Source: Rhodanobacteraceae bacterium (GTDB lineage Bacteria > Pseudomonadota > Gammaproteobacteria > Xanthomonadales > Rhodanobacteraceae). Taken from it: a stretch of 41,568 nucleotides of DNA. The notes below the pieces were generated by a model. It saw only the letters and a list, made by a program, of their open reading frames with translations, had not been told where the DNA came from and did not search any database. The translations under genes and the position numbers were made by a program. This document shows positions 4,060-23,012 of this stretch, piece after piece (position 1 is the stretch's first letter; the number at the start of each line of letters is the position of its first letter). The stretch is taken from contig JAICJG010000011.1 in the NCBI GenBank assembly GCA_025928585.1, forward strand, positions 1-41,568, written 5' to 3'.

Positions 4060-4319
4060 AGCCAGCGCTCCCGGAACAGCACCAGCACCAGCATGCCCGG
4101 CAGGCCCAGCAGCGCCAGGGCCAGCGCGAGGCCGAGCGAGGATGCCTGCTCGAACGCGAACTCGAGCAGGACCAGCACGAATACGGCCAGCGAATACGCG
4201 AACTGGATTGCCACCATCCGACCGGAAGTGCCGCCGCGGCCACACGCGACCAGCGCCGCGATCAGGGGCGGCAGCAGCCCGATAGCCGCGAGCAGCCAGG
4301 CATTCACGAATTCAGCCAC
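4056..4319 (-). CDS. mrpF: Antiporter subunit F
   Basis: An 87-residue MnhF/MrpF-like protein made of three hydrophobic helices (about 6-26, 34-52 and 63-82) with a short basic C-terminal end. It is encoded between subunits E and G, the invariant place of F in Mrp and Mbh operons. The start is taken as GTG at 4317-4319, which overlaps the end of mrpE by 16 bp and gives a normal family length. Sequence conservation in this family is low, so the call relies on size, topology and position. Confidence 0.75.
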   Translation of the reverse strand: MAEFVNAWLLAAIGLLPPLIAALVACGRGGTSGRMVAIQFAYSLAVFVLVLLEFAFEQASSLGLALALALLGLPGMLVLVLFRERWL

Positions 4320-4783
4320 CGCGGATCGCGTGATGCGTTCTGGGGCAGGATCGCGTGCATCAGGACGCAATCCTTCCCGGGTGGCGCGCGTACCACGAAG
4401 TTGTCCGGCCCGAGCGACGCGATCAGTACCGCCGAGGCGCGGCGTGCGGCGTCGCTGGCGCCGCCTTCCGCACCGCGTCGAAACGATACTTCGAGCGCGC
4501 GGGCCGGCGCGCGGCCGAGCAGAGCGCCGGCCACGAAAATCGGAAAAGTCCTGGCGATCGCGGGACCGAGCGAGGCCACGGCTTTGGTCCATTCGGTCGC
4601 GTGCGCCGACGAAAGCGCGAAGCTCCGATGGCCGCGCTGCCGGATGGCCCATGCCCACACCGCGGCGCCCGTCGCGAGCACCGCGGCGGTGATCAACTCG
4701 TGGCGGCTGTTCACGACGCCGACGAACAGCAGATAGCCACCGCAAGCGGCAATCCATGTCGCGTATCGCGCAAACCAAGCCAT
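4304..4783 (-). CDS. mrpE: Antiporter subunit E
   Basis: A 159-residue MnhE/MrpE family protein. It begins with two to three helices including a region rich in Val, Gly and Ala, followed by a cytoplasmic domain with the family-like run SVNSRH/LGPDNFVVRAPPGKDCVLMH (split across about 24-30 and 125-147), comparable to the TPGT/HxLD core of the family. It is the first gene of the operon. ATG at 4781-4783 is preferred over the one at 4790-4792 because AAGGA lies nine bases before the former but abuts the latter. Nothing promoter-like is obvious in 4784-5012. Confidence 0.75.
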   Translation of the reverse strand: MAWFARYATWIAACGGYLLFVGVVNSRHELITAAVLATGAAVWAWAIRQRGHRSFALSSAHATEWTKAVASLGPAIARTFPIFVAGALLGRAPARALEVSFRRGAEGGASDAARRASAVLIASLGPDNFVVRAPPGKDCVLMHAILPQNASRDPRWLNS

Positions 4784-5012
4784 TCGGTGCATTCCTTGCC
4801 CAGACCGAGGCCTACGGATGGGATTCTACGCGCGGCCGATGAAAGCTGCGTGGAGACCTGCGGCGTCCCGCGCATCGCACGACCGGTACGGCCGCGAGCA
4901 GGACGGGGCCCGCTTCGATCGAGATCGCTCGTCGGCGGGACTGTTCGCGGTGGAGGGCCCGCGGGGTTCGCAAAGAGCGCTCACCCGCACTCACGCACGC
5001 GGCAACACCGCT

Positions 5013-6329
5013 CTACGGTCGCTTGTAGATTACGCCACCCTTCATCACGAACGGTACGTGTTCGATCGCCGTGATGTCCCTGGTCGGGTCGCCCTCGACC
5101 GCGATGATGTCGGCGTCGAGGCCGGGGCGTAGCTGCCCGAACTTGTCCTGCTGGCGCAGGATCTTCGCGTCCACCGCGGTCGCGGCGAGCAACGCCTGCG
5201 CCGGGCGCATGCCGTCCTTCACCATCCACTCGAGTTCCTTGTAGTTGGTGCCGTGCTTGAACACGCCGACATCGCTTCCGCAGCCGATGGTGACGCCGGC
5301 CTGCATCGCATACTTGAACGCATTCTGCGAGGCGCGCATTTCCTCGGTCGGCGGATCGCCGGGTTTCCAGTGCTGGAAGTACTCGGCATACGCTGCCACG
5401 GCTTCGAGGGTCGGCAGATAGGCGACATGGTGCTTCTTCATCATCGCGAAGACCTCGGGCGTGCCGTAGAAGCCGTGCTCGATGGTGTCGACGCCCGCAC
5501 GGATCGCGCGGCGCATGCCCTCGGGCGTGGTCGAATGCACCGACACTGGCAGGCCCAGCGAATGCGCGGCTTCCACCCCGGCGTTCAGCTCCTCCTGGGT
5601 GAAGGTCGGCACCGAGCCGTGCGACTTGCCGCAGTGGTAATCGGCGTAGATCTTGATCCAGTCGGCGCCGTGGCCGGCCTGGTCGCGCACCGCGGCGATC
5701 ATCTCCGGCACGCCGGCCACCGGGATCCCGCCCTGCGGCAGCCTCATGTCGGTGCGGAAACCCATCGGGCCGGGACCGTAGCAATCCTTCGCGACCGTCG
5801 CGCGCGTCGCGACGAAGAGGTGCGGCCCCGGGATCAGGCCATCGTCGATTGCCTTCTGCACCTGCACGTCGGCGTAGCCTGCGCCCTCGGTTCCGAGGTC
5901 GCGCAGCGCGGTGAAGCCCGCCAGCAACGTGTCGCGCACGTGGTTGACCGCCTCGATCGTGCGGTAGGCCAGCGGCTCCTTCAGCACCTGGTCGTTCCAC
6001 AGCGTCTCGTTGTACGGGTGCAGGAAGATGTGCGAATGCGCGTCGATCAGGCCCGGCAGCAGCGTAGTGCCCGGGAGACCGATGGTTTTCGCGCCGGCGG
6101 GAACCTCGATCGAACCGCGCGGCCCGACCGCGGCGATCTGGCCGCCCTCGACCAGCACCGCCCAGCCCGCGTGCGCCTGTTCGCTGCGCGCGTCGAACAC
6201 GCGATCGGCCGTGAGCAGGAACACGCCGTTCGCACTCCGGCCGGCGTCGGCAGGTGGCTGCTGTGCGGCGGGCGCCGTGGCCGTCACCGCCAGGGCAACG
6301 AGCGCGATCAGGATCTTCCGCATCGACAT
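5013..6329 (-). CDS. Exported metal-dependent amidohydrolase (imidazolonepropionase/Xaa-Pro dipeptidase-like)
   Basis: A 438-residue amidohydrolase-superfamily enzyme. A Sec signal peptide (about 1-22, ending in APAAQ) sends it to the periplasm. The N-terminal beta domain leads to the metal motif DAHSH (96-100, H98 and H100). Later come WIKIYADYH, with a lysine that is carbamylated in relatives, a histidine segment [17 protein letters not shown], and the final aspartate in GCGSDVGVF. The closing beta domain ends [13 protein letters not shown], typical of the group. Relatives act on prolyl dipeptides or related cyclic amides, but the substrate here is not determinable. ATG at 6327-6329 is preceded by AAAGGGGG. 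It is divergent from the cytochrome c gene. Confidence 0.85.
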
Positions 6330-7635: not shown

Positions 7636-8433
7636 TCACGACGCCACGGACAGGAACCCGAGTTCGTCTTCGCCGAAACCTGCCGCGCGCCGCGCCTCCA
7701 GGTTGAAGGGACCGTGCAGTCTCCCGCCGAGCCGTTCGCGGAGAAGCCTTCGGAACGTTTCCGTGGGATCCAGGCCTTCGCGACCGCAGCAATACCGGAA
7801 CCAGCGCGTGCCGGTGGCGACGTGCGGCACTTCCTCGCGCAGGATCACCTCGAGGATCGCGGCGGTCGCATGGTCGCCGACCGCCTGCAGCCGCGCGATC
7901 ATGCCGGGCGTCACATCGAGGCCGCGCGCTTCCAGTACGCGCGGCACCAGCGCCATCCGCGCGAGGCAGGAATCGGCCGTCTTGACGGCCATCTCCCAGA
8001 GCCCGTTGTGGGCATCGAAATCGCCGTAGGCGTGGCCGAGTTGCCCGAGCCGCGCCGCGAGCATCGTGAAGTGCCGCGCTTCGTCGTTGGCGACCGACAC
8101 CCAATCGCGGTAGTAATCCACGGGCATCCCGCGGAAGCGGTACACGGCGTCCCAGGCGAGGTTGATCGCATTGAATTCGATGTGCACCACCGCGTGGACC
8201 AGGGCCGCGCGGCCTTCCGCGCTCCCGAGGGCTCGCCGCGGCACCTCGCGCGGCAGCACCAGCCGCGGCCGTGCGGGACGGCCCGGGGCGACCGGCAGCC
8301 CAATCGAGCCCTCGTCCCCGAGCGACAGGCGATCTTCACGCAATGCTTCGAACGCCCGGCGTGTCAGCGCAACCTTCTCGGCCGGCTGCGCACTTTCGAG
8401 GCAGCGTCTGGCAACGGCGAACAGGCTGGTCAT
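7636..8433 (-). CDS. DUF455 family ferritin-like protein
   Basis: A 265-residue all-helical protein of the DUF455 family, a ferritin-like fold. Putative metal ligands are in HIEFNAINLAWD (H84, E86) and NDEARHF (E118, H121), with further carboxylates in ILREEVPHVATG (about residues 200-212), forming the ExxH-type pairs expected for a diiron or similar site. The biochemical role of the family is not established; an oxygenase or redox function is plausible because MiaE-type enzymes share the fold. ATG at 8431-8433 overlaps the stop of the DUF2235 gene by 4 bp (ATGA), so the two are co-translated. A longer frame upstream of this ATG is only overlap with that gene. Confidence 0.8.
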   Translation of the reverse strand: MTSLFAVARRCLESAQPAEKVALTRRAFEALREDRLSLGDEGSIGLPVAPGRPARPRLVLPREVPRRALGSAEGRAALVHAVVHIEFNAINLAWDAVYRFRGMPVDYYRDWVSVANDEARHFTMLAARLGQLGHAYGDFDAHNGLWEMAVKTADSCLARMALVPRVLEARGLDVTPGMIARLQAVGDHATAAILEVILREEVPHVATGTRWFRYCCGREGLDPTETFRRLLRERLGGRLHGPFNLEARRAAGFGEDELGFLSVAS

Positions 8434-9533
8434 CCGACCTCGCTCGACCCCAGCTCGATCAAACGCCGGTCCATCGCCACTCCGAGCGAGGGCGGGCGGT
8501 AGGTGGATTGTTCGTACCATTTCAACCACACGGAAGGGTCGATCGTTTCATGGATGCCGCCGCCCAGCACCCGCTGGAACGGCTGCTTGAACAGCCGGTA
8601 GAGGCCGCCCATGAAACCGCCGTAGGAATCGTTCGGCACATCCAGCTCGGCGCCGGGCGGTGGCACGAACGCCTCGGTGAACGCGAGACCCGCGCCGGCC
8701 GCCTTGGCCTGCATCCAGCCCAGCGTGATTTCCGGCAGCGTGTCGGGACTGTGGCCTGCGCCATCGGTTTCCTCGCCGCCGCCGACGTCCGAGTGTGCGC
8801 CGACAAACCAGCGCTGCTCGACCTCGATCTGTTCGGGCTTCCACGCCTTCGGCGACTCGCCCGCGGCAAGGGTGTTGGTGGGCCGCGTCCATTTGGTCGG
8901 CTTGAAATCCGCGCGGTGTTCGTCCAGCGCGAGCGCCTGGTAGGCGTACTGGACGATCTTGCTCAGGTCGGTGTCGTGGAAAGCATAGCGGCTGCGCGCG
9001 AACGGAAACCACGAGGCGACGCCCGGGATGCCGAGCGAGCCTACGGTCTCCCACACGCCGATGAAGCGGATCGTGACCTCGTGCGAATGCGCGGCGCGGA
9101 ATGCCTGCATGGCCGGGTCGTTCGGGTGCAGGTTGTTGCGATAGAGCGCATAAGCCGAGTCCACCTCCGACCGCGGGACCGCACCCTTGTCGTCGGGCTT
9201 CAGCAAGCCGCACTTGCGGAGCAGTCCGCCGAGGCTGCGCGCGGTGTAGGCGCCGCGACTGAAGCCGAGCAGCCAGATTTCATCGCCCGCGCGCCAGGTC
9301 TTCGCAAGCCATTGGTATCCATCCTTCACGTTGCCGGACAGGCCCAGGCCGAACGCGCCGCCGAGCCAGTGGCCGATGCCGGGCTTCACCCCGACCCCGG
9401 CAAAGTACCTGCATATCTGTTCAACGCCAGCGCCGTCGGCCGGCGCGACCAGCCGCCAGAAACGCTCCACGTTGGTGCGCGTCTGGGCCCTGCTCCAGGT
9501 GCCGTCGAACAGCGCAACGAGTCGGCGCGGCAT
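8430..9533 (-). CDS. DUF2235 alpha/beta hydrolase (putative lipase-like)
   Basis: A 367-residue protein of the DUF2235 family. It opens with the family signature RRLVALFDGTWS and has the nucleophile elbow LLGFSRGAYTAR (G90-F-S92-R-G94). A further family motif is the acidic and histidine-rich VGAHSDVGGG near residue 252, which supplies the likely catalytic Asp and His. Members include type VI secretion phospholipase effectors (Tle group) and uncharacterised hydrolases. No VgrG, PAAR or immunity-like gene is adjacent here, so an effector role is not supported. The start is taken at 9531-9533, seven bases after AAGGGG; ATG codons at 9536 and 9557 are alternatives, and the latter would run into a dispersed repeat. 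Confidence 0.8.
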   Translation of the reverse strand: MPRRLVALFDGTWSRAQTRTNVERFWRLVAPADGAGVEQICRYFAGVGVKPGIGHWLGGAFGLGLSGNVKDGYQWLAKTWRAGDEIWLLGFSRGAYTARSLGGLLRKCGLLKPDDKGAVPRSEVDSAYALYRNNLHPNDPAMQAFRAAHSHEVTIRFIGVWETVGSLGIPGVASWFPFARSRYAFHDTDLSKIVQYAYQALALDEHRADFKPTKWTRPTNTLAAGESPKAWKPEQIEVEQRWFVGAHSDVGGGEETDGAGHSPDTLPEITLGWMQAKAAGAGLAFTEAFVPPPGAELDVPNDSYGGFMGGLYRLFKQPFQRVLGGGIHETIDPSVWLKWYEQSTYRPPSLGVAMDRRLIELGSSEVG

Positions 9534-9551
9534 CATGGATCCCCTTGATGT

Positions 9552-9579
9552 CGTCATTCCGGCGACGGCCGGAATCCAG
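9552..9579. repeat. Dispersed palindromic repeat (GTCATTCC...GGAATCC type)
   Basis: The stretch CGTCATTCCGGCGACGGCCG continues to GGAATCCAG. It has perfect 8-bp arms at 9556-9563 and 9568-9575 around GACG. On one strand it reads as VVIPATAGIQ and on the other as DSGRRRNDD, the familiar conceptual translations of an intergenic repeat widespread in Xanthomonadales and other proteobacteria. A degenerate copy lies at 11359-11386. Confidence 0.75.
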
Positions 9580-13426: not shown

Positions 13427-14761
13427 TCACCCGCGGAACCCCTCGAGCACCGGCGCGACTACGTGGAAGCTGCCGAATGCGAGGATCCGGTCGTCGCCGG
13501 ATGCGGCCATTCGCGCCGCCGACAGCGCGCCATCGATGTCCGCGAATGCCTCGATCGAGGCGGCCGGCAACACCGCGCGCACGCGTGCCGCCAGCCGCGC
13601 CACGGTTTCGCCCCGGGGCGACTGGTCGGCGAGCCCCGCGAGATACCAGTGGTCGATGCGGGGGCCGAGCGCGGTTGCCATGCCTTCGATGTCCTTGTCC
13701 GCGAGCGCCCCGAACGCGGCACGGGTGGCGCCCGGGACCGGATGCCGGTCCAGCCAGCGCGCCAGTTCGCGCGCGGCCTGCGGATTGTGGCCGACGTCGA
13801 CCACGAGGTCGGGGTGGCGCTGCAGGTGCTGGAGGCGACCCTCGAGCAACGGCGGGCCGCCGCCGGCGCGAGCGTCCCTGGCGATCGCGGCATGGCACCA
13901 GCGCACCCGCGGCCCGAGCGCGTGCAGGGCCGCGATCGCCGCCGCGGCATTGCGGTACTGGAACGCGCCCTCCAGCGCGAGTTCGCCGTGCAGCACGATC
14001 CCGCCGGGACTGCCTTCCGCCGGCGCCACGTAACGCGCTTGCCCCGGATCCCGATGCCACCACGCCAACTCGCCCACCTCCGGCGACCAGCCGAAGTCGC
14101 GCCCCAGGACTTCCGCCCGGGCACCGATCGCGCGGGCGTGCGCCAGCAAGGAGTGCGGAGGTTTGGTCTCGCCGATGATCGCCGGACACCCGGCGCGGAA
14201 GATTCCCGCCTTCTCGCGACCGATCGCCTCGCGGTCGGGCCCGAGATATTCCATGTGGTCGAGGTCGACCGTCACCACCACCGCGCAATCCGCGTCGATG
14301 ATGTTGACCGCGTCCAGGCGGCCGCCGAGGCCGACTTCCAGCAAGGCGACGTCCACCTGCGCGCGCCCGAAGATGTCGAACGCCGCGAGCGTGCCGAATT
14401 CGAAATAGGTCAGCTCTATTGCTTCGGCCGAACCGGCGGCGCGCACCGCCTCGACCCGTTCGAAGGCAGCCACCAGCACCCCATCCGCGACCGGTGCGCC
14501 GTCCACCCGCACGCGTTCGTTGTAGCGCAGGATGTGCGGAGACGTGTAGGCGCCCACGCGCATCCCGCCCGCGCGCAGCATCGCTTCCAGGAAAGCAACG
14601 GTGGACCCCTTGCCGTTGGTGCCGCCGACCGCGATCACCACCGGCGCCAGCCGCCGGTCGCCCATGCGCGTCCACACTTCGCGCACTCGCTCGAGACCCA
14701 TGTCGATGCCACGGGCGTGGATGGTCTGCTGGTATGCCAGCCATTCGCCGAGGGTTTTCAT
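13427..14761 (-). CDS. folC: Dihydrofolate synthase/folylpolyglutamate synthase
   Basis: 444 residues, Mur-ligase superfamily. It joins glutamate to dihydropteroate and extends the polyglutamate tail of folates using ATP. The P-loop is GGTNGKGST (46-54). The family substrate and metal segments YTSPHILRYNERVRVDG and LLEVGLGGRLDAVN are intact. The C-terminal Mur-ligase domain has VVDVGHNPQAARELA. ATG at 14759-14761 overlaps the end of a doubtful small frame upstream by 4 bp. It sits between accD and dedD as in E. coli and Pseudomonas. Confidence 0.95.
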   Translation of the reverse strand: MKTLGEWLAYQQTIHARGIDMGLERVREVWTRMGDRRLAPVVIAVGGTNGKGSTVAFLEAMLRAGGMRVGAYTSPHILRYNERVRVDGAPVADGVLVAAFERVEAVRAAGSAEAIELTYFEFGTLAAFDIFGRAQVDVALLEVGLGGRLDAVNIIDADCAVVVTVDLDHMEYLGPDREAIGREKAGIFRAGCPAIIGETKPPHSLLAHARAIGARAEVLGRDFGWSPEVGELAWWHRDPGQARYVAPAEGSPGGIVLHGELALEGAFQYRNAAAAIAALHALGPRVRWCHAAIARDARAGGGPPLLEGRLQHLQRHPDLVVDVGHNPQAARELARWLDRHPVPGATRAAFGALADKDIEGMATALGPRIDHWYLAGLADQSPRGETVARLAARVRAVLPAASIEAFADIDGALSAARMAASGDDRILAFGSFHVVAPVLEGFRG

Positions 14762-15088
14762 GCCCCGCCCACCTCTTCGGCGTCAAGGTCCCCTTCCGTG
14801 CGCGTCCCGCGCGCACGAGGCAGTGCCGAAACCGTCATGCCCCGCGCAATGGTTTTGGCCACCTTTGCCCAAACAAAAGTGGTAGCCCGCTCGCCGCCGG
14901 CCACATCGGCCAGATTACCGATTTGAACGCCGGAGGCGGCCCGGAGGGCCATCCACCGGGATGTGGCGGGGAGGCGAGCGGAACCGCAACACGGGCACCG
15001 GAACCTTGCGCCGCGGAACAGGAGATCAACACAGGAACGTGCACCGTCGTGTGCGGGCCGCATGCCACGCCGGGAACCGCCCAAGGCG
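14762..15088 (-). other. accD-folC spacer, possible small ORF
   Basis: A 327-bp gap. An open frame on the minus strand ends in TGA at 14758-14760, overlapping the folC ATG by 4 bp; it could begin at a TTG at 15084 or an ATG seven codons later (about 100 residues). It contains FRCPCCGSARLP and, later, RATTFVWAKVAKT, a phrase reminiscent of conceptual translations of Xanthomonadales intergenic repeats. There is no clear ribosome site and no family recognised. It is probably noncoding, although the ATGA overlap leaves a coupled leader peptide possible. Confidence 0.3.
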
Positions 15089-15952
<864 letters not shown>

Positions 15953-16031
15953 GGAGTGGCCCCTGTGGTCATCACGACAGCCAAGGATACACTGCCTGGC
16001 AAGCACCCGGCGCCCGGCACCGAATGAACCG

Positions 16032-16619
16032 CTAGCGGCGTCGAACGCCGTCCGCGTCAATGTGCCCCCACATCAACTTCCATGCCAGCAGCAGGCAAAT
16101 GGCCGCTCCGATTGCAAGCATCGCCTTGCCCAGCCCTTGCTGGTCGCCCAGCAGGTAGTTGCTGCACAGCCGTTGCGGCGAAATCAGGTACAGCCAGCCC
16201 ATCCGGAATGCTGTCGCAACGACTTCGACCAGGTACACGCCGCGCACCACGAAACCCGCACTCGGCCAGCTGATCGCCAGCGGCAGGCCCATCAACAGGG
16301 GCACGCTGGCGAATTTCGCGACCTCGACCCAGGGCACCTCGAGCGCTGCGTCCATCGAGCGCGGCAGCATCCAGAACAACGCCACCACCGAGACCAGCAC
16401 GATGCCGCTGATGCCACTGCGATTCCAGGCGGGGAGAGTGTCGGTCAGGTGCTTCGGCAGCAACGGTGACAGCCACCACCCCGCGACCGCGAGCAACGGA
16501 ATCTGGACCAGCATGTGCAGCATGATCGAGGACTCGAGCGCTCCCCGCACCGGCGGCAACACCAGCACGCACCACAACGCGGGACCGCGCCACGATTGCC
16601 AGCGTGACGACACCGTCAT
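16032..16619 (-). CDS. Membrane protein of the norSY-senC-orf1 type cluster
   Basis: 195 residues with about five predicted helices (near 10-27, 34-50, 68-84, 100-120 and 165-182). No cofactor motif is evident; histidines at HMLVQIP, KHLTD and WGHID are scattered. ATG at 16617-16619 overlaps the SCO gene stop by 4 bp, so it is translationally coupled to it. In ammonia-oxidising bacteria the sNOR subunit and senC genes are followed by an uncharacterised membrane-protein gene called orf1, and this gene occupies that place. It is probably an assembly factor or accessory subunit. Homology to those orf1 products is not demonstrated here. Confidence 0.6.
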
Positions 16620-17233
16620 GGCGCCTCCCCGCGCAGGACGTAACGTTCGGCTTCGGCCGGCTTGTCCCAGTCGATGATTGCGATCAGCCTTCCCTGCGGA
16701 TCGACCACAGCGATCGCACTATTGTGCACATACCCGCCGAGCCCATCCGATATTGCGGTCACGCCGAACACGCCCATCAGGGCGCGCAGCCCGGAAGCAC
16801 TGGTCGGACGCGCCGCGATCCACCCCGCACCCCGATCACCCGAGCGGCGTTGGTAGGCGGCCAACTGGGCGGGATTGTCCCGGGTGGGGTCGAAGCTGAT
16901 GCTGAGAAGCGTCACGCGGTCGGCCGCGATCGGCGCGGCCAGTCGTTGCTGCATTTGCGCAAACTCGGTGCCCTGGATCGAGCAGTAGGTCCGGCAGCGG
17001 GTATAGACGAAATCAACCAGCACCCAGCGTCCGCGCAGCTCGGCGAAGCTGATGGTTTGTCCATCGGCCGTCTGCAACGGGGTGGAAGGCAGCGCGCGCG
17101 GATGCTCGCGTACGTCGATGCGACGCGCGGTTTCGGAAGTGAACGCGCGGAATCCGTCGGTGGCGACGGCGAGCGCTGCCACGCCCGCCACCAGGATCAC
17201 CAAGCTAGCCAGCAGCGTCCGCAGCACCCACAT
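16616..17233 (-). CDS. SCO/SenC family copper chaperone
   Basis: 205 residues: an N-terminal membrane anchor (about 4-24) and a periplasmic thioredoxin-like domain. Copper ligands are the CxxxC in YTRCRTYCSIQG (C80, C84) and the distant histidine in GGYVHNS (H170). SCO proteins deliver copper to the CuA site of heme-copper oxidase subunit II; this operon encodes a CuA-type subunit II. The start at 17231-17233 has GGAGG five bases upstream and overlaps the subunit I gene by 29 bp. A GTG two codons earlier abuts the ribosome site and is less likely. Confidence 0.92.
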   Translation of the reverse strand: MWVLRTLLASLVILVAGVAALAVATDGFRAFTSETARRIDVREHPRALPSTPLQTADGQTISFAELRGRWVLVDFVYTRCRTYCSIQGTEFAQMQQRLAAPIAADRVTLLSISFDPTRDNPAQLAAYQRRSGDRGAGWIAARPTSASGLRALMGVFGVTAISDGLGGYVHNSAIAVVDPQGRLIAIIDWDKPAEAERYVLRGEAP

Positions 17234-18704
17234 CAGCACCTCCGGACCGCGACGACCTCAGCAAGCCGGCGGTGATCCGGATCGCGAAATAGAGCATCGC
17301 CAACACCACCAGCATCGCGCCGATCGATCCGAGCTTGTCGGTGAAAGTCCACGCCTGCAGGTGCTCGGCCATGCGCCGCGGCACGCTCGCGTGCCCACCG
17401 GCGAGGAACGCGAAAACGAAGATGAGCCCACCGATCACGTAGACCGGGAAGCCGACCCGGTCGCTGCCGGAATTCGGCGGCCCGTTCGTGCGGCGGCCGA
17501 CTTCGTGATACATCAGCGACAATGCCATCGCCAGCACGCCGAGCAACAGGTAGAAATGGAAGTGGCCAGGCACCCACTGCGTATTGTGCATCACCAGGTT
17601 GATGCGGATGGTGCCGTCGAGAATCGCGCCGAAGCCACCCGCGACCCAGCCGAACAACGCCAGGATCATCAGCCTTGGCGGCATCGTCCAGCGGATGTTG
17701 GACCGCCAGAGGTTGGTGAGGGCGCCGTAAACCGTCACCACCACTACCGGGAACCCCGAGCCCCACGACGCAAACTGCCCCAGCGTCAGGAACCAGTGCG
17801 GCTCGGCGTAATCCATCAGCAGGTGGTGGGGGAACACGATGATCACCAGCACCGTCGTTGCTGCCCACCCCCACAGGAACACGCGCGAAAGCGGGTACGG
17901 CTTGCCGGTGTAGCGCGAGAGCAGTTCGTAAATCGCGATCACGCCCATGTAGATCGCGGCGTTGATGTACATGTGCCCGAACCAGTAGATCAGGGTCTTG
18001 GCGAACAGCGCGTCGATTGCCACTTGCGGAAAGAAGATGTTGATGAGGCTCATCACGAGCACCACCGCGCCCGCGAGGATCCCCAGCGAATTGGCGATGA
18101 TCATGCTGGTGCTCGCAACCACCGTCTTGGGGTGGTCGGGATTGATGTCGCCACCGAACAACCACTGCAACCCAAGGGCGCGTCCGAGATTGCCGTGCAC
18201 CTTGATGATCCCGGCCGCCGCGTCAAGATAGAAAATCAGTTCGCCGACACCAATCAGGAGGTAGCCCAGCATGAACAAGGCCGAGGCATGCGGACTCCAC
18301 ATCCCCATGCCGTGCGTGGGCAATGGATACAGGAACGTCCACAGCGCCGCGTAGCCACCAATGAAGACCGCGAAGATGATGCACAGGGCACCTGCCATGA
18401 ACATGACATAGTTGGTGACGAAGGCCCACAAGTGCAGCCGCACGTACTTGCGCAGGAAGAACCACATCACCGCGGTCGTCGCCAGTACCATGGTGCCGAC
18501 CATGCCCGCGCCGTGCATGGACAACAGTTGGTAGAAGAACTTGGGCGGAACACCCACCCAGCCTGTCTGCGACATGCGCATGGTGAGGCCCACCAACATG
18601 AACACCACGACCAGCAACACTGCGGTAATCATGTACAGGTTGAACGCGAACCGCGCGCTGCCCGTCAGGTGCTCGTCATCGGGATACATGGTGAGTGAGG
18701 CCAT
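17205..18704 (-). CDS. Heme-copper oxidase-superfamily subunit I, sNOR/NorY-like
   Basis: 499 residues, about 12-13 helices. The metal-ligand pattern of the superfamily is complete: H64 (LSMHGAGM) and H383 for the low-spin heme, H381 for the high-spin heme (WVPGHFHFY), and H244 (WFGHMYIN), H293 and H294 (FPHHLLMD) for CuB. The residue four after H244, which is the cross-linked tyrosine in A- and B-type oxidases (HPEVY), is Asn248. The protein therefore lacks the canonical active-site tyrosine, as reported for several cytochrome-oxidase-like nitric oxide reductases. The order subunit II, subunit I, SenC, membrane protein equals norSY-senC-orf1. The start at 18702-18704 is preferred, seven bases after AGGAG. 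O2 or NO reduction cannot be decided by sequence alone. Confidence 0.85.
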   Translation of the reverse strand: MASLTMYPDDEHLTGSARFAFNLYMITAVLLVVVFMLVGLTMRMSQTGWVGVPPKFFYQLLSMHGAGMVGTMVLATTAVMWFFLRKYVRLHLWAFVTNYVMFMAGALCIIFAVFIGGYAALWTFLYPLPTHGMGMWSPHASALFMLGYLLIGVGELIFYLDAAAGIIKVHGNLGRALGLQWLFGGDINPDHPKTVVASTSMIIANSLGILAGAVVLVMSLINIFFPQVAIDALFAKTLIYWFGHMYINAAIYMGVIAIYELLSRYTGKPYPLSRVFLWGWAATTVLVIIVFPHHLLMDYAEPHWFLTLGQFASWGSGFPVVVVTVYGALTNLWRSNIRWTMPPRLMILALFGWVAGGFGAILDGTIRINLVMHNTQWVPGHFHFYLLLGVLAMALSLMYHEVGRRTNGPPNSGSDRVGFPVYVIGGLIFVFAFLAGGHASVPRRMAEHLQAWTFTDKLGSIGAMLVVLAMLYFAIRITAGLLRSSRSGGADVGAADAAG

Positions 18705-18808
18705 GGCCATTCTCCTGCTCGTTCGGCATTCCGGGGTGCGTAGGTCGATACTGGCTGCCGGGGTCTTCCGCCGTCATCGCGGGTGTGCCCGGCCATCGCA
18801 GTGCCACG

Positions 18809-19726
18809 TCACGGCTTTCGTTGTGCCGCTACGTCCTTCACAGTCGCCGTCGGCGCATGGTTGCCCCAACTGGTGCGCTCGTGGTTGATCACCGCCGCGA
18901 CCTCCTCGTCACTGAGCTGATTGCCCCAACCGGGCATTTGCGCAGCGTAAGTCGTGCCACCGATCGTCCTGCCGTGGGTGCCGTGCAGGACGATATTGAT
19001 ATGTTCGGCAGGATCGGCGGCCGTCACGACCGGGTCACCCGCCAGCGGCGGAAAGACGCCCGGCAAGCCTTTGCCGGTTGCCTGGTGGCAAACTGCGCAA
19101 TGGTTGTCGTACACCTGTGCGCCCGAGACGGGCGCAGCTGGCGCCGCCTCGGCCACCGCAGCGGCGGCTGATGCGCCGTGCGGCGTTTGCTCGCTGGCAA
19201 CCACCTTGAGCGTACTCGTCATCTCCGCGTGCATGAGCCCGCAATACTCGAGGCACCGCACCGTGTAGGTGCCTGCCCGATCGAAGGTATGCAGCATCTT
19301 GTTGGTGTAGCCCGGCATCGCCTGCACCTGGGCCACGATGCGACCGTCAGGCCCGTAGAGGGCGAAACCGTGGTTGACATCGTCGCTGGTGACGCGAAAT
19401 TCCACCCTGCTGCCGGCTTGCACCGTATCCGGCTTGATCTGCCAGGACCACTGGCGTCCGACGGCGTTCACCACCTGCGTGGCGCCCAGATCGGTGTGCT
19501 GCGGCGGAATCGGGTAATGCTGCAGCGTGATGAAGCTGCCGACGATGAATCCGACCGCCAGTATCAGGAACCACCAAGCCTGCACGATGTGCGTGGTTCG
19601 ACTGAACTTCCGGGCTTGCGCCTCGTCCGATGGCTTGCCCGCCATGACGACGACAATGATGAATCCCAGCGCGATGATCGCTATCCCGACAAGGAGAATG
19701 ATCCAGGCAAGATTTTGCAGATGCAT
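18809..19726 (-). CDS. Heme-copper reductase subunit II with CuA and cytochrome c domains
   Basis: 305 residues: two helices (about 6-28 and 48-68), a periplasmic cupredoxin domain, then a cytochrome c domain. All CuA ligands are visible: H119 (DDVNHGF), C158, E160 and C162 (CLEYC), H166 and M169 (GLMHAEM). An Ala/Pro-rich linker (183-203) precedes heme motif C210-x-x-C213-H214, with likely Met ligand M264 (AAQMPGW). It would accept electrons from a soluble cytochrome and pass them via heme c and CuA to subunit I. AGGGG lies five bases before the ATG. A 104-bp gap separates it from subunit I. Immediately upstream is the transposase relic, so its promoter may lie in or near the IS. Confidence 0.9.
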   Translation of the reverse strand: MHLQNLAWIILLVGIAIIALGFIIVVVMAGKPSDEAQARKFSRTTHIVQAWWFLILAVGFIVGSFITLQHYPIPPQHTDLGATQVVNAVGRQWSWQIKPDTVQAGSRVEFRVTSDDVNHGFALYGPDGRIVAQVQAMPGYTNKMLHTFDRAGTYTVRCLEYCGLMHAEMTSTLKVVASEQTPHGASAAAAVAEAAPAAPVSGAQVYDNHCAVCHQATGKGLPGVFPPLAGDPVVTAADPAEHINIVLHGTHGRTIGGTTYAAQMPGWGNQLSDEEVAAVINHERTSWGNHAPTATVKDVAAQRKP

Positions 19727-19765
19727 CGGGTCCCCTCGTGGTCTGCGTTCGCGACGTGCGCGGCG

Positions 19766-19797
19766 ACCTTGCTACTATGCTGTCACTGCATTGTCAA
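19766..19797 (-). promoter_or_regulatory. Possible outward promoter from the IS relic towards subunit II
   Basis: On the minus strand a perfect TTGACA (19792-19797) occurs within the last codons of the transposase and points at the subunit II gene, whose ATG is 66 bp away. A 17-bp spacing places a poor -10 (TAGCAA) over the transposase stop. IS ends often carry outward -35 boxes. This is suggestive only. Confidence 0.25.
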
Positions 19798-20833
19798 GGC
19801 GCTGTATTGGGCCAGTACATCCGGCACGGATTGCCAAGCCGATCGGCGGGTATATCGAGCGGGGTACGCAGCGCGATGCCGTGGTGGGGCGTTCGGCGTT
19901 GTACCAGTGCAGCCACTCGAACAGACGATCGTTGAAGGCACCGAGGTCGTCGAGCAACAGGGCTTCGCGGTAGGCGACGGACTCGTCCTGGATGGTGGGG
20001 TTGAAGCGTTCGCAGTGGGCATTCATCTTGGGGGTACGCGGGTGGTGTGCCAATACGCGAGGCCTTGGCTGACGATGGCGTCGTGCAAGTGTTTGGCGAA
20101 CTCGCCGCCGTTGTCCGAGAGCACGCGTTGCAGGGAAACCGGGAACACGATCTGGACGAGCGCTAAGGTCAGGGCGGCGCGGGCACTGGAACGGGTACGG
20201 AACGCCAAGGCGAAGCTGAAGCGGCTGGCCAGGCCGATGCAGGTAATGAGGTAGCGGGCCAAGCCGTCCTTGCGGCGTTCGATGGTATCCATGGCCAGGC
20301 AATCGCCCGGGCCTTCGGGCCGATAGCCCTTGGGCTTGCGGATTCGCGGCCGACGCAGGACGCGGCCTTGCGCAAACCGCGAGACCCGGCGTGGCGCGTG
20401 GCGCATCTTGTCCGGCGCATCGGCGATCAATCGTAATGGTGCGCACCGAGGGGCAGCGCAGGCCCTGTCGCCGACACCACGCTGCAAGAAACGGATGCAG
20501 CTTCTCCTTGCCCAGGTTCTGGTGCTGGGTCCGCAGCCTGCGGAGCTCGGCCAGCAGCGCCGGTGGCCAGCGACGCTGCCGCAGATGGTGGGTCGGGTAC
20601 TCAACGGCGCGCGCAGCCGGATCGCCACCGCCCATGCGCAACCGCTCTCGCCACGCGTACAACGTCCGGCGCGAAACCCCGAAGGCTTCCTGCGTGGCCA
20701 AGAGCCCATGCTTCTCCCAGAAGCACAGGATGCGGCGCTGCTCGGCATCGGCGCTGATCATGCTCCAGCAAAGAGCACGATCCGCGACCGCAAGAAAGCC
20801 CTTTACGCGGTATCCGACCCTTCTGATCTGCAC
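19775..20833 (-). pseudogene. IS481-type DDE transposase, two frameshifts
   Basis: Conceptually about 350 residues. An N-terminal helix-turn-helix (WEKHGLLATQEAFGVSRRTL, then YAWRERL) is followed by an rve-type DDE core with the first Asp in CLAMDTIERR, the second in LSDNGGEF and the Glu in KMNAHCERFN. The frame breaks near 20434, where the expected ..TIGRLIADAP.. has lost two bases or gained one, and again near 20043, where a T is missing from the codon that would complete HTYPRTPKMN. The second shift restores the first frame. The gene is therefore inactive. CERFNPTIQ replaces the usual CERFNRTIQ, another sign of decay. Clear terminal inverted repeats were not found; only a weak 8/10 match (TGCATTGTCA inward at the left, TGCACTCTCA inward at the right near 20855) was seen. 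Confidence 0.8.
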
Positions 20834-20939
20834 CTCCCTCCCTCCAGGTGAGAGTGCAAATGTTGCTGGCCCGAGTCAGGCGCGATTGCCGATCACACGC
20901 TCCCGGACTGGATGGCCACCAGCAGCCGGCGACTATGCG

Positions 20940-21791
20940 TCAACCCCGGTGCATGTCGAGGGCGTGGCGGATCGGCGCGAGAAACCTCCGTGCACGCACG
21001 CAGGCGTCCTCGCGATCGGGCGCTCCCGCAAGTGTCGCCACCAGCGCCGAGCCGATCACCACCGCGTCGGCAAACGCAGCCACTGCCTTCGCGCTGGCTG
21101 CATCCTTGATTCCGAAACCGACCGCGACTGGTACGTTTGCGCGCCTGCGAAGATCGCCGACGCGTTGCGCGATGTCTTGCGCCGACAACTTCGACCCTCC
21201 GGTGATGCCCGCGAACGACACGTAATACAGATAACCCTCGGCCGCTTCGACCGCGCTGGCGAGACGCGGCTCCGAAGTCGTGGGCGCGACCAGCAGGATC
21301 CGTTCGAGGCCAGCGTCGCGCAGGGGTTGCAATGCAGCGTCTTCCTCGATCGGACAATCGACCACCAGTACGCCATCCACGCCGGAATCGACCGCTTCAC
21401 GCGCGAAACGTTCGACCCCGTGGATCGCGATCGGATTCAAATAGCCCATCAGCACGACAGGCGTATCCGTGTCGCGCCCGCGAAATTCGCGCACCCATTG
21501 AAGGATGCCCGGAACGCCGACCTTGTTGCGCAGGGCGCGCTCGTTGGCGTGCTGGATCACGGGCCCGTCGGCCATCGGGTCGGAGAACGGCACACCGAGT
21601 TCGATGATGTCCGCGCCGCCGTCCACCAGCGCGTGCATGACATCCACCGTTGCGTCCGGAAACGGGTCGCCGGCGGTGATGAACGGGATCAGCGCGGTGC
21701 GTTGGCGCGCTTGCAGCCTCGCGAAGGTTGCGCCGAGTCGATCTTTCCCCGTTCCCCGTTCCCCATTCCGGCTGTCGCTGGTTGCGCTCAC
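20940..21791 (-). CDS. trpA: Tryptophan synthase alpha subunit
   Basis: 283 residues, TIM barrel. It cleaves indole-3-glycerol phosphate and passes indole to TrpB through the alpha-beta tunnel. Catalytic Glu64 is in [11 protein letters not shown] and Asp75 in MADGP (Glu49 and Asp60 in E. coli); the phosphate loop is GFGIKDA. The 15-residue offset reflects an N-terminal extension ([14 protein letters not shown]) encoded by a simple repeat at 21744-21771. The start is GTG at 21789-21791, overlapping the trpB TGA by 4 bp. Downstream the usual accD is displaced by the IS relic and reductase cluster. Confidence 0.95.
21744..21771. repeat. TTCCCCG simple repeat inside the trpA 5' end
   Basis: Three to four tandem copies of TTCCCC(G/A) on the plus strand (GGGAACGGGGAA-type on the coding strand). 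It resembles the GGGAATCGGGAATC-type intergenic repeats of Xanthomonadales, here read through as coding sequence. A related short run occurs at 27607-27630. Confidence 0.6.
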
Positions 21792-22999
21792 AGCTCGAAT
21801 CCCTCGCGCTGCGCGATCGTATGCACATCCTTGTCGCCACGGCCGGAGAGATTGCACAGCACGAGGCCGTCCTTCGGCAGCTCGCGGGCAAGCCTGATTG
21901 CTTGCGCGACCGCGTGGCTCGATTCCAGGGCAGCGAGGATGCCCTCGGTTTCGCAGAGCAGGTGGAACGCGGCGAGCGCCTCTTCGTCGGTGACGCCCAC
22001 GTATTCGGCGCGGCCGGTGTCCTTCAGGAACGCGTGTTCGGGGCCGACGCCCGGATAGTCGAGTCCCGCCGAGACCGAGTGCGTTTCGATGATCTGGCCG
22101 TCGTCGTCGCACAACACGTAGGTGCGGTTGCCGTGCAGCACGCCGGGCCGGCCCGCGGCGAGCGAGGCCGCGTGCCGGCCCGTTGCCAGTCCCAGGCCCG
22201 CGGCCTCGGCACCGACGATGCGCACCTCCCGGTCGTTGAGGAACGCGTGAAAGAGACCGATCGCATTCGAGCCCCCGCCCACGCACGCAGTCAGCACGTC
22301 CGGCAGGCGCCCGAATTGTTCCAGCATCTGCGCGCGCGCCTCGCGCCCCACCACCGCGTTGAAGTCGCGGACCATGGTGGGATACGGATGCGGCCCTGCG
22401 ACCGTGCCGATGATGTAGAAGGTATCGACGACGTTCCCGACCCAGTCGCGCAGCGCCTCGTTCAGCGCATCCTTGAGCGTCTTCGAACCGGACGTCACCG
22501 GTACCACTTCCGCGCCCAGCAGCTTCATGCGGTAGACATTGATCTTCTGGCGCTCGATGTCGACCGCGCCCATGTACACCACGCATTGCATGCCGAAGCG
22601 CGCGCACACCGTGGCGGTCGCGACGCCGTGCTGGCCGGCGCCGGTTTCCGCGATGATGCGGCGCTTGCCCATCGCGCGCGCCACCAGCGCCTGGCCGACG
22701 GTGTTGTTGATCTTGTGCGCGCCGGTGTGGTTCAAGTCTTCGCGCTTGAGCAGGATCTGCGCGCCGCCGATGCGCGCGGACAGCCGCTTCGCGTGGTAGA
22801 TCGGTGAGGGCCGGCCGACGTAATGCTTCAGGTCGTCCGCGAATTCCTTCTGGAACGCCGGGTCGTCCCGAAGCCGGGTGTAGGCGGCGGTCAATTCCTC
22901 CAGCGGCGCGATCAGCGTTTCCGCGACGAAGGTGCCCCCGTACGGACCGAACCGGCCGCGTTCATCAGGGTAGCGGTAGAAGTCGATTTCCTCGGTCAC
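21788..22999 (-). CDS. trpB: Tryptophan synthase beta subunit
   Basis: 403 residues, PLP fold type II. It condenses indole with serine to give tryptophan. The PLP lysine is K96 in [12 protein letters not shown]; the catalytic Glu lies in [10 protein letters not shown], and the phosphate-binding loop is VGGGSNAIG. The start is GTG at 22997-22999, with only a weak ribosome site upstream, and its stop overlaps the trpA GTG by 4 bp. trpF lies 86 bp upstream across a dispersed repeat. No leader peptide or attenuator is visible. Confidence 0.96.
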
Positions 23000-23012
23000 C
23001 TCAGGAGCCTCT

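What the first reader, a model, noticed from the sequence alone, without database searches (positions are those of the whole stretch)
16032..19726. Candidate cytochrome-oxidase-like nitric oxide reductase (norSY-senC-orf1 layout) lacking the active-site tyrosine
Seen: subunit II with complete CuA ligands plus a fused heme c, subunit I with all six metal histidines, an SCO protein and a small membrane protein, in that order and partly overlapping. In subunit I the residue four after the CuB histidine (H244) is Asn248, not the tyrosine that A- and B-type oxidases cross-link. Known: tyrosine loss marks several heme-copper NO reductases, and norSY-senC-orf1 is the sNOR cluster of ammonia-oxidising bacteria. 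Inference: this organism carries an sNOR-like enzyme outside that group, or a divergent oxidase. The fused cytochrome c domain on subunit II is an added feature. No subunit III, heme-a synthesis or cox assembly genes are nearby.
Basis: partly seen in the sequence, partly recalled or inferred. Interest (0 to 1): 0.85.

Follow-up and report, generated by a model that had tools for sequence, protein, structure and literature searches.

The report
sNOR nitric-oxide reductase with cytochrome tail
This gene cluster encodes an sNOR-type nitric-oxide reductase, a known relative of cytochrome oxidase that has an asparagine in place of the usual active-site tyrosine, here with an unusual extra cytochrome c fused to its electron-input subunit; it probably turns nitric oxide into the greenhouse gas nitrous oxide, but its activity has not been measured here.

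Summary
In detail: a minus-strand cluster of subunit II (CuA plus fused heme c), subunit I (all six metal-binding His), SCO protein and a small membrane protein, with Asn where oxidases carry the cross-linked Tyr. It is not a stray oxidase. It lies inside the known sNOR family with NorY of ammonia oxidisers (45-49% identity), Ruegeria (Silicibacter) pomeroyi (43%) and Nitrococcus mobilis (63%). All 118 family rows aligned have Asn; all 12 A/B-type oxidases aligned have Tyr. sNOR is already reported outside ammonia oxidisers, so tyrosine loss and gene order are not new. Less usual: (1) the heme c tail on subunit II, seen in 3 of 78 related loci and none of 19 ammonia-oxidiser loci; (2) a NirK-like protein in the same genome with a 51%-identical cytochrome c tail; (3) no NorB-type reductase found in this genome, nor the NorB motif in a one-contig congener with NirK-like protein and sNOR. 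Most likely it reduces NO to N2O with electrons from the tethered cytochrome c. NO versus O2 as the real substrate is open in print and here. A known kind, with an unusual electron-input variant.

The parts
18809..19726 (-). norS: subunit II, two N-terminal membrane helices, CuA domain, fused C-terminal cytochrome c domain
   Evidence: matches subunit II of the ammonia-oxidiser loci; the two helices are read by eye from the sequence
19085..19099 (-). heme c site CAVCH (residues 210-214) of the fused cytochrome c domain
17205..18710 (-). norY: catalytic subunit I, 501 aa, 12 membrane-length helices in the predicted model
17961..17963 (-). Asn250 codon, in place of the His-cross-linked tyrosine of A/B-type oxidases
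17973..17975 (-). His246 codon, helix VI CuB ligand
16616..17239 (-). senC: SCO1/SenC copper chaperone with CRTYC motif (residues 82-86) and His172
16032..16619 (-). orf1: small membrane protein of the norSY-senC-orf1 cluster, no Pfam match; found in 79 of 80 related loci

Best explanation
This is an sNOR, the known Asn-type heme-copper nitric-oxide reductase encoded by norSY-senC-orf1, in a Rhodanobacteraceae-like gammaproteobacterium. Electrons from periplasmic or bc1-linked carriers would enter the heme c tail of NorS, pass to CuA, then to the low-spin heme of NorY and on to the high-spin heme/CuB site, where two NO become N2O and water; with no cross-linked tyrosine the site lacks the extra electron donor that oxidases use to split O2 (recalled). 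SenC would load CuA. Shown: genes, ligands, Asn, clade, gene order, fused heme c, a NirK-like gene in the genome and no NorB-type enzyme found in it. Inferred: electron path, NO as substrate, and pairing with NirK.
For: Clade with ammonia-oxidiser NorY at 100/100 (45-49% identity; 10 of 10 tested sNOR-bearing genomes of that family carry AMO). Asn at +4 in 118 of 118 rows, Tyr in 12 of 12 A/B-type oxidases aligned. A published table gives N as the sNOR active-site residue (PMC8756737, passages). Cluster matches norSY-senC-orf1 (PMC4940428, passages) in the ammonia-oxidiser loci and R. pomeroyi. For N. mobilis, whose protein is 63% identical, PMC6967387 reports first indirect evidence of NO reduction by sNOR, from a paper that I did not see (passages). 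Own genome: 8 COX1-family places, the seven others reading as A-type or cbb3 and none as NorB; no HLWVEG motif; a NirK-like protein with a related cytochrome c tail.
Against: No activity data were found for close relatives other than that indirect report. PMC6967387 argues from transcription and placement among B-type oxidases that sNOR may be a high-affinity O2 reductase in N. europaea. In the 16 genomes of the genus sNOR does not track NirK: 4 of 9 with a NirK match have sNOR, and 4 of 7 without it do. Four sNOR genomes also have a qNOR-like gene, so sNOR is not simply a replacement. The own NirK-like match is under the model's cut-off (198.8 against 296.3 bits). The tree lacks bNOR, eNOR, gNOR and nNOR.
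Confidence: 0.72

Rival explanations
1. Same protein family, but its main job is high-affinity O2 reduction under hypoxia; NO reduction is a side reaction.
For: Published argument for N. europaea: transcription up 2.7- to 10.8-fold under O2 limitation, high O2 affinity of B-type enzymes, heme-copper centre (PMC6967387, passages). No tie of sNOR to NirK in the genus.
Against: The Tyr that A/B-type oxidases use is absent in all 118 rows, and the cbb3-type helix VII place is Val289 (V in 116 of 118; column checked). The genome already has several A-type oxidases and a cbb3-type enzyme.
Confidence: 0.22
2. A divergent ba3/aa3 oxidase that supplies the active-site tyrosine from another helix.
For: General models call it cytochrome oxidase subunit I (COX1; CtaD at 68.9 bits, far below its cut-off of 670.75); the best fold matches are A-type oxidases.
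Against: Only Y60, Y254, Y261 and Y387 are Tyr in 118 of 118 rows. Y254 and Y261 lie 8 and 15 residues after H246 on the same helix, too far for a cross-link by helix spacing (inferred; no distances were measured). The clade excludes the 12 Tyr-bearing oxidases.
Confidence: 0.03
3. A bNOR (CuANOR), the other Asn-type heme-copper NO reductase, rather than sNOR.
For: bNOR/CuANOR also has Asn (PMC8756737 Table A4), I had no authentic bNOR sequence for the tree, and PMC3475470 (passages) likens the Bacillus type I CuANOR cluster, senC included, to N. eutropha sNOR.
Against: 45-49% identity and shared norSY-senC-orf1 layout with ammonia oxidisers. Twelve helices in subunit I and two in subunit II (sequence) resemble the Bacillus type II enzyme, whereas type I, the purified CuANOR, has a longer subunit I and one helix in subunit II (PMC3475470).
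Confidence: 0.03

Closest known systems
sNOR (norSY-senC-orf1) of ammonia-oxidising bacteria
   Same: Asn after the CuB His, CuA subunit II, SCO protein and orf1 in the same order; 45-49% identity in subunit I
   Different: No heme c seen on subunit II in the 19 ammonia-oxidiser loci, one of which (L134) showed only a piece of it; different type of organism
sNOR of Nitrococcus mobilis Nb-231 (locus L040)
   Same: 63% identity in subunit I, HTFIN motif, same gene order
   Different: Subunit II without heme c
Ruegeria (Silicibacter) pomeroyi DSS-3 cluster SPO_RS20760-20745
   Same: 43% identity, II-I-SCO-orf1 order
   Different: No fused heme c; Rrf2-type regulator next door and a separate small cytochrome c
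bNOR / CuANOR of Bacillus azotoformans
   Same: Asn replaces the cross-linked Tyr, CuA subunit II, SenC nearby (PMC3475470, PMC8756737, passages)
   Different: Reported as a quinol/cytochrome c dual enzyme; not compared in a tree here
caa3-type oxidases
   Same: Cytochrome c domain fused to the C-terminus of the CuA subunit (architecture recalled; entry 2yev is listed)
   Different: Those are Tyr-bearing A-type O2 reductases (recalled)

Membership tests
sNOR | Asn at the position of the cross-linked tyrosine | tested here: met
   Asn250; N in 118 of 118 family rows; published residue N
sNOR | Monophyly with NorY of ammonia oxidisers | tested here: met
   44-row clade 100/100, within which the ammonia-oxidiser rows fall in two places; ammonia oxidisers identified by AMO in 10 of 10 tested. 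No bNOR, eNOR, gNOR or nNOR references were available
sNOR | norSY-senC-orf1 gene order | tested here: met
   layout named in PMC4940428
sNOR | CuA-bearing subunit II | tested here: met
   H119, C158, E160, C162, H166, M169
sNOR | No proton channels | not tested
   Published as 0 predicted channels
sNOR | NO reduction to N2O | not testable with these tools
   Needs biochemistry
bNOR (CuANOR) | Clusters with Bacillus azotoformans CbaA | not tested
   No authentic bNOR sequence was obtained
A- or B-type O2 reductase (aa3, ba3) | Tyr four after the CuB His | tested here: not met
   Asn250; Tyr in 12 of 12 reference oxidases
cbb3 (C-type) | Tyr on helix VII, six before the HH pair (role recalled) | tested here: not met
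   Same alignment column: Tyr in the own cbb3, Val289 in the window; V in 116 of 118 rows
cNOR/qNOR | HLWVEG helix VI motif with the FeB glutamate (recalled) | tested here: not met
   GHMYIN instead; the nine genome hits of the motif lie in NorB-like ORFs, of which one was confirmed by Pfam

The most novel reading that the evidence does not exclude
The window enzyme is a self-wired sNOR: its own cytochrome c tail, of the same family as the tail on the genome's NirK, lets nitrite and NO reduction draw on the same electron donor, and sNOR serves as the organism's only respiratory NO reductase, making it a nitrite-to-N2O organism that standard norB surveys miss.
Probability: 0.3. Interest if true: 0.6.

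Novelty: new variant of a known kind. Interest (0 to 1): 0.38.

Why it matters
Whether sNOR is really an NO reductase or a hypoxia oxidase is unsettled in print (PMC6967387, passages). Genomes that carry a NirK-like gene and sNOR but no detectable cNOR or qNOR would be cleaner test cases than ammonia oxidisers, several of which also have cNOR (PMC4940428). Such genomes would be scored as lacking an NO reductase by surveys that look only for NorB, so N2O potential could be undercounted. The fused cytochrome c may also give a two-subunit enzyme that needs no separate small cytochrome as donor.

Tried and rejected
Horizontal-island idea: the cluster lies between trpA and accD beside a transposase remnant and in a G+C dip, but the same trpA/norSY/accD neighbourhood recurs in congeneric loci L001, L002, L003 and L008, and the cluster lies just past accD in L025 and L055 (Dokdonella) and L029 and L052 (Lysobacterales), so I dropped a recent-transfer claim. 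L051, the congener with the same fused tail, showed neither trpA nor accD within its 6 kb flanks.

NirK/sNOR co-occurrence: no association in the 16 genomes of the genus. FNR/DNR-type box: 2 one-mismatch hits in the whole window against 1.52 expected, none near norS. Sigma-70 promoter scan: nothing above chance. Inverted repeats that would mark insertion-sequence ends: none of 12 bases or more in 19700-21000. A regulator of the Rrf2 family beside the cluster was seen in R. pomeroyi; I did not look for it systematically elsewhere.

NorB motif as an absence test: only 3 of 9 ammonia-oxidiser genomes matched it, so its silence alone is weak, also for G004; for the own genome I rely on the COX1 HMM, which does score a qNOR (168 bits). 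NosZ: only the Sec-type model was run; its four hits were partial and far below the cut-off, and the TAT-type model was not run. narG was not searched.

Fold search: the best matches are A-type oxidases (Z 37.4, 2.9 A, 453 residues), which shows the superfamily and not the substrate. NCBIfam gives only distant oxidase models.
Full report
What is there. Four minus-strand ORFs run 19726 to 16032: norS (305 aa), norY (501 aa), a SenC/SCO protein (207 aa) and orf1 (195 aa). Pfam calls COX2 plus Cytochrom_C, COX1, SCO1-SenC and nothing, respectively. NorS holds the CuA ligands and a separate CAVCH heme site. norY differs from the three relatives compared mainly at third codon positions, so the gene is under constraint.

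Relatives. A scan of one genome for each of 84,980 species gave 115 confirmed relatives, of which the tool kept 80: Rhodanobacter, Dokdonella, Thermomonas, Comamonas, Castellaniella, Nitrococcus mobilis (63%), Halochromatium, Afifella and many metagenome genomes, at 42-80% identity. The nameless genome bank gave 14 of 369 in the class and 8 of 61 close relatives, the own genome counted in both, and 19 of 81 in the family of G380. That family I take to be Nitrosomonadaceae: all 10 of its sNOR-bearing genomes that I tested carry ammonia monooxygenase, as did G380 itself, which has no sNOR; the other nine sNOR-bearing ones were not tested. Plasmid records added Ruegeria pomeroyi DSS-3, formerly Silicibacter (that older name is recalled), and named oxidases. 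My labels 'ba3-like' and 'A-type' for these rest on the record's annotation for three of them and otherwise on motif and tree.

Active site. In an alignment of 131 proteins (four fragments, L049, L056, L096 and L108, were dropped) Asn stands at the +4 column in 118 of 118 sNOR-side rows. Tyr stands there in 12 of 12 A/B-type oxidases, and Ala in the own cbb3. Tyrosines present in all 118 rows are Y60, Y254, Y261 and Y387. The column of the cbb3 helix VII tyrosine holds Tyr in the own cbb3 and Val289 in the window, V in 116 of 118. So no conserved tyrosine is in reach for the known cross-links; this is inferred from helix spacing, as no coordinates were measured.

Tree. With 57 chosen rows of the 131 (IQ-TREE, PMSF) the window falls in a 44-row clade, support 100/100, with R. 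pomeroyi, N. mobilis and the ammonia-oxidiser NorY, which fall in two places within it; the ba3-like group (4 rows) and the A-type group (8 rows) stand apart. Two Asn-bearing rows, Thermomicrobium roseum and G207, are long branches at the base, and their placing is unsure. The tree is rooted by midpoint only and holds no authentic bNOR, eNOR, gNOR or nNOR. AlphaFold on 38 rows gave mean pLDDT 84.5 and pTM 0.88, with 12 membrane-length helices by my count; the best fold matches are A-type oxidases, Z 37.4.

Gene order. Of the 80 loci, subunit II was found in 78 (in the other two the contig begins inside subunit I), SCO in 80 and orf1 in 79; only the strand of norY within 5 kb was looked at, and in L016 orf1 lies about 1.1 kb beyond SCO. 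In the 19 ammonia-oxidiser loci all four parts gave matches, though in L134 subunit II was only a 76-residue piece without a CuA motif. This is the norSY-senC-orf1 layout named for ammonia oxidisers (PMC4940428, passages).

What is already in print. sNOR with active-site N is tabulated for Betaproteobacteria, Silicibacter, Deinococcus and Geobacillus (PMC8756737, passages). sNOR is counted in Bacillota (PMC11388526, passages), and models or reference sets for it are in use (PMC12569097, PMC11707229, PMC10359470, passages). Its role is disputed: PMC6967387 (passages) proposes a high-affinity oxidase in N. europaea while noting indirect NO-reduction evidence from N. mobilis in another paper that I did not see. 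So 'outside ammonia oxidisers' and 'tyrosine lost' are not new.

What is less usual. Heme c on subunit II: the window plus L022, L023 and L051, i.e. 3 of 78 related loci with a subunit II match, and none of the 19 ammonia-oxidiser loci. My paper searches listed no paper whose title is about such a fusion; I saw only listings there, so this is no proof of absence. The tail is 51% identical over 104 residues to the C-terminal tail of a NirK-like protein in the same genome, which also has N-terminal membrane segments by eye. In 13 of 16 genomes of the genus at least one match to the tail was found; of those read, tails sit on NirK-type proteins, on FixO-like cbb3 subunits (one confirmed by Pfam) and on a small membrane-anchored cytochrome. 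The four NorS tails group together, next to NirK and FixO-like tails, with modest support (84/90).

NO metabolism of the genome. COX1-family places: eight, namely this one and seven others that read as A-type (six, two of them partial genes at contig ends) or cbb3 (one). The HMM does score a qNOR, so absence of NorB is meaningful for this assembly (183 contigs, 100% complete, 2.86% contamination). No HLWVEG motif, no NirS match, no NosZ over the cut-off with the Sec-type model, and a NirK-like match under the cut-off. The one-contig genome G004 shows the same pattern: NirK-like match (also under the cut-off) plus sNOR without the motif. Against a simple story: in the genus 8 of 16 genomes have sNOR (G008 partial), 9 have a NirK match and 6 have the NorB motif in a qNOR-like ORF; sNOR is found in 4 of 9 with NirK and in 4 of 7 without; four genomes have sNOR and the qNOR-like gene together.

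Mechanism. Electrons from a periplasmic or membrane donor would enter the heme c tail, then CuA, the low-spin heme and the heme/CuB site, giving N2O from two NO. SenC would deliver copper; orf1 may aid assembly. Metal sites are shown by sequence; the path, the substrate and the roles are inferred. The O2-reductase reading stays open.

Verdict. Observation confirmed, interpretation supported: a member of the known sNOR family in a Rhodanobacteraceae-like host, of a rare variant with tethered cytochrome c.

Noticed in passing
own genome G000:C73, about 4302-6320 minus (locus L146): NirK-like protein with N-terminal membrane segments and a C-terminal cytochrome c tail 51% identical to the NorS tail; 198.8 bits to the Cu nitrite reductase model, cut-off 296.3.
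   Followed up: partly
window 19775-20833, minus: Transposase remnant (rve_3) between norS and trpA whose reading seems to switch frame; no match in the other fetched loci at E 1e-15.
   Followed up: partly
window 13427-23000; loci L001, L002, L003, L008, L025, L029, L052, L055: norSY sits between trpA and accD here and in four congeneric loci; in L025, L029, L052 and L055 trpA and accD are neighbours and norSY lies just past accD. The congener L051 lacks both genes within 6 kb.
   Followed up: partly
window 8430-9557, minus: Protein with a T6SS Tle1-like phospholipase domain.
   Followed up: no
L109 (G207) and L148 (Thermomicrobium roseum plasmid): Deep Asn-bearing relatives with motifs HTFTN and HTLVN, at 30-34% identity; the Thermomicrobium gene stands next to a formate/nitrite transporter, and one also lies in the R. 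pomeroyi cluster.
   Followed up: no
L164 and L172 (G001): Two copies of the same cytochrome c tail family in one protein; in L172 behind a FixO-like part (by likeness to L165, which Pfam confirms).
   Followed up: no
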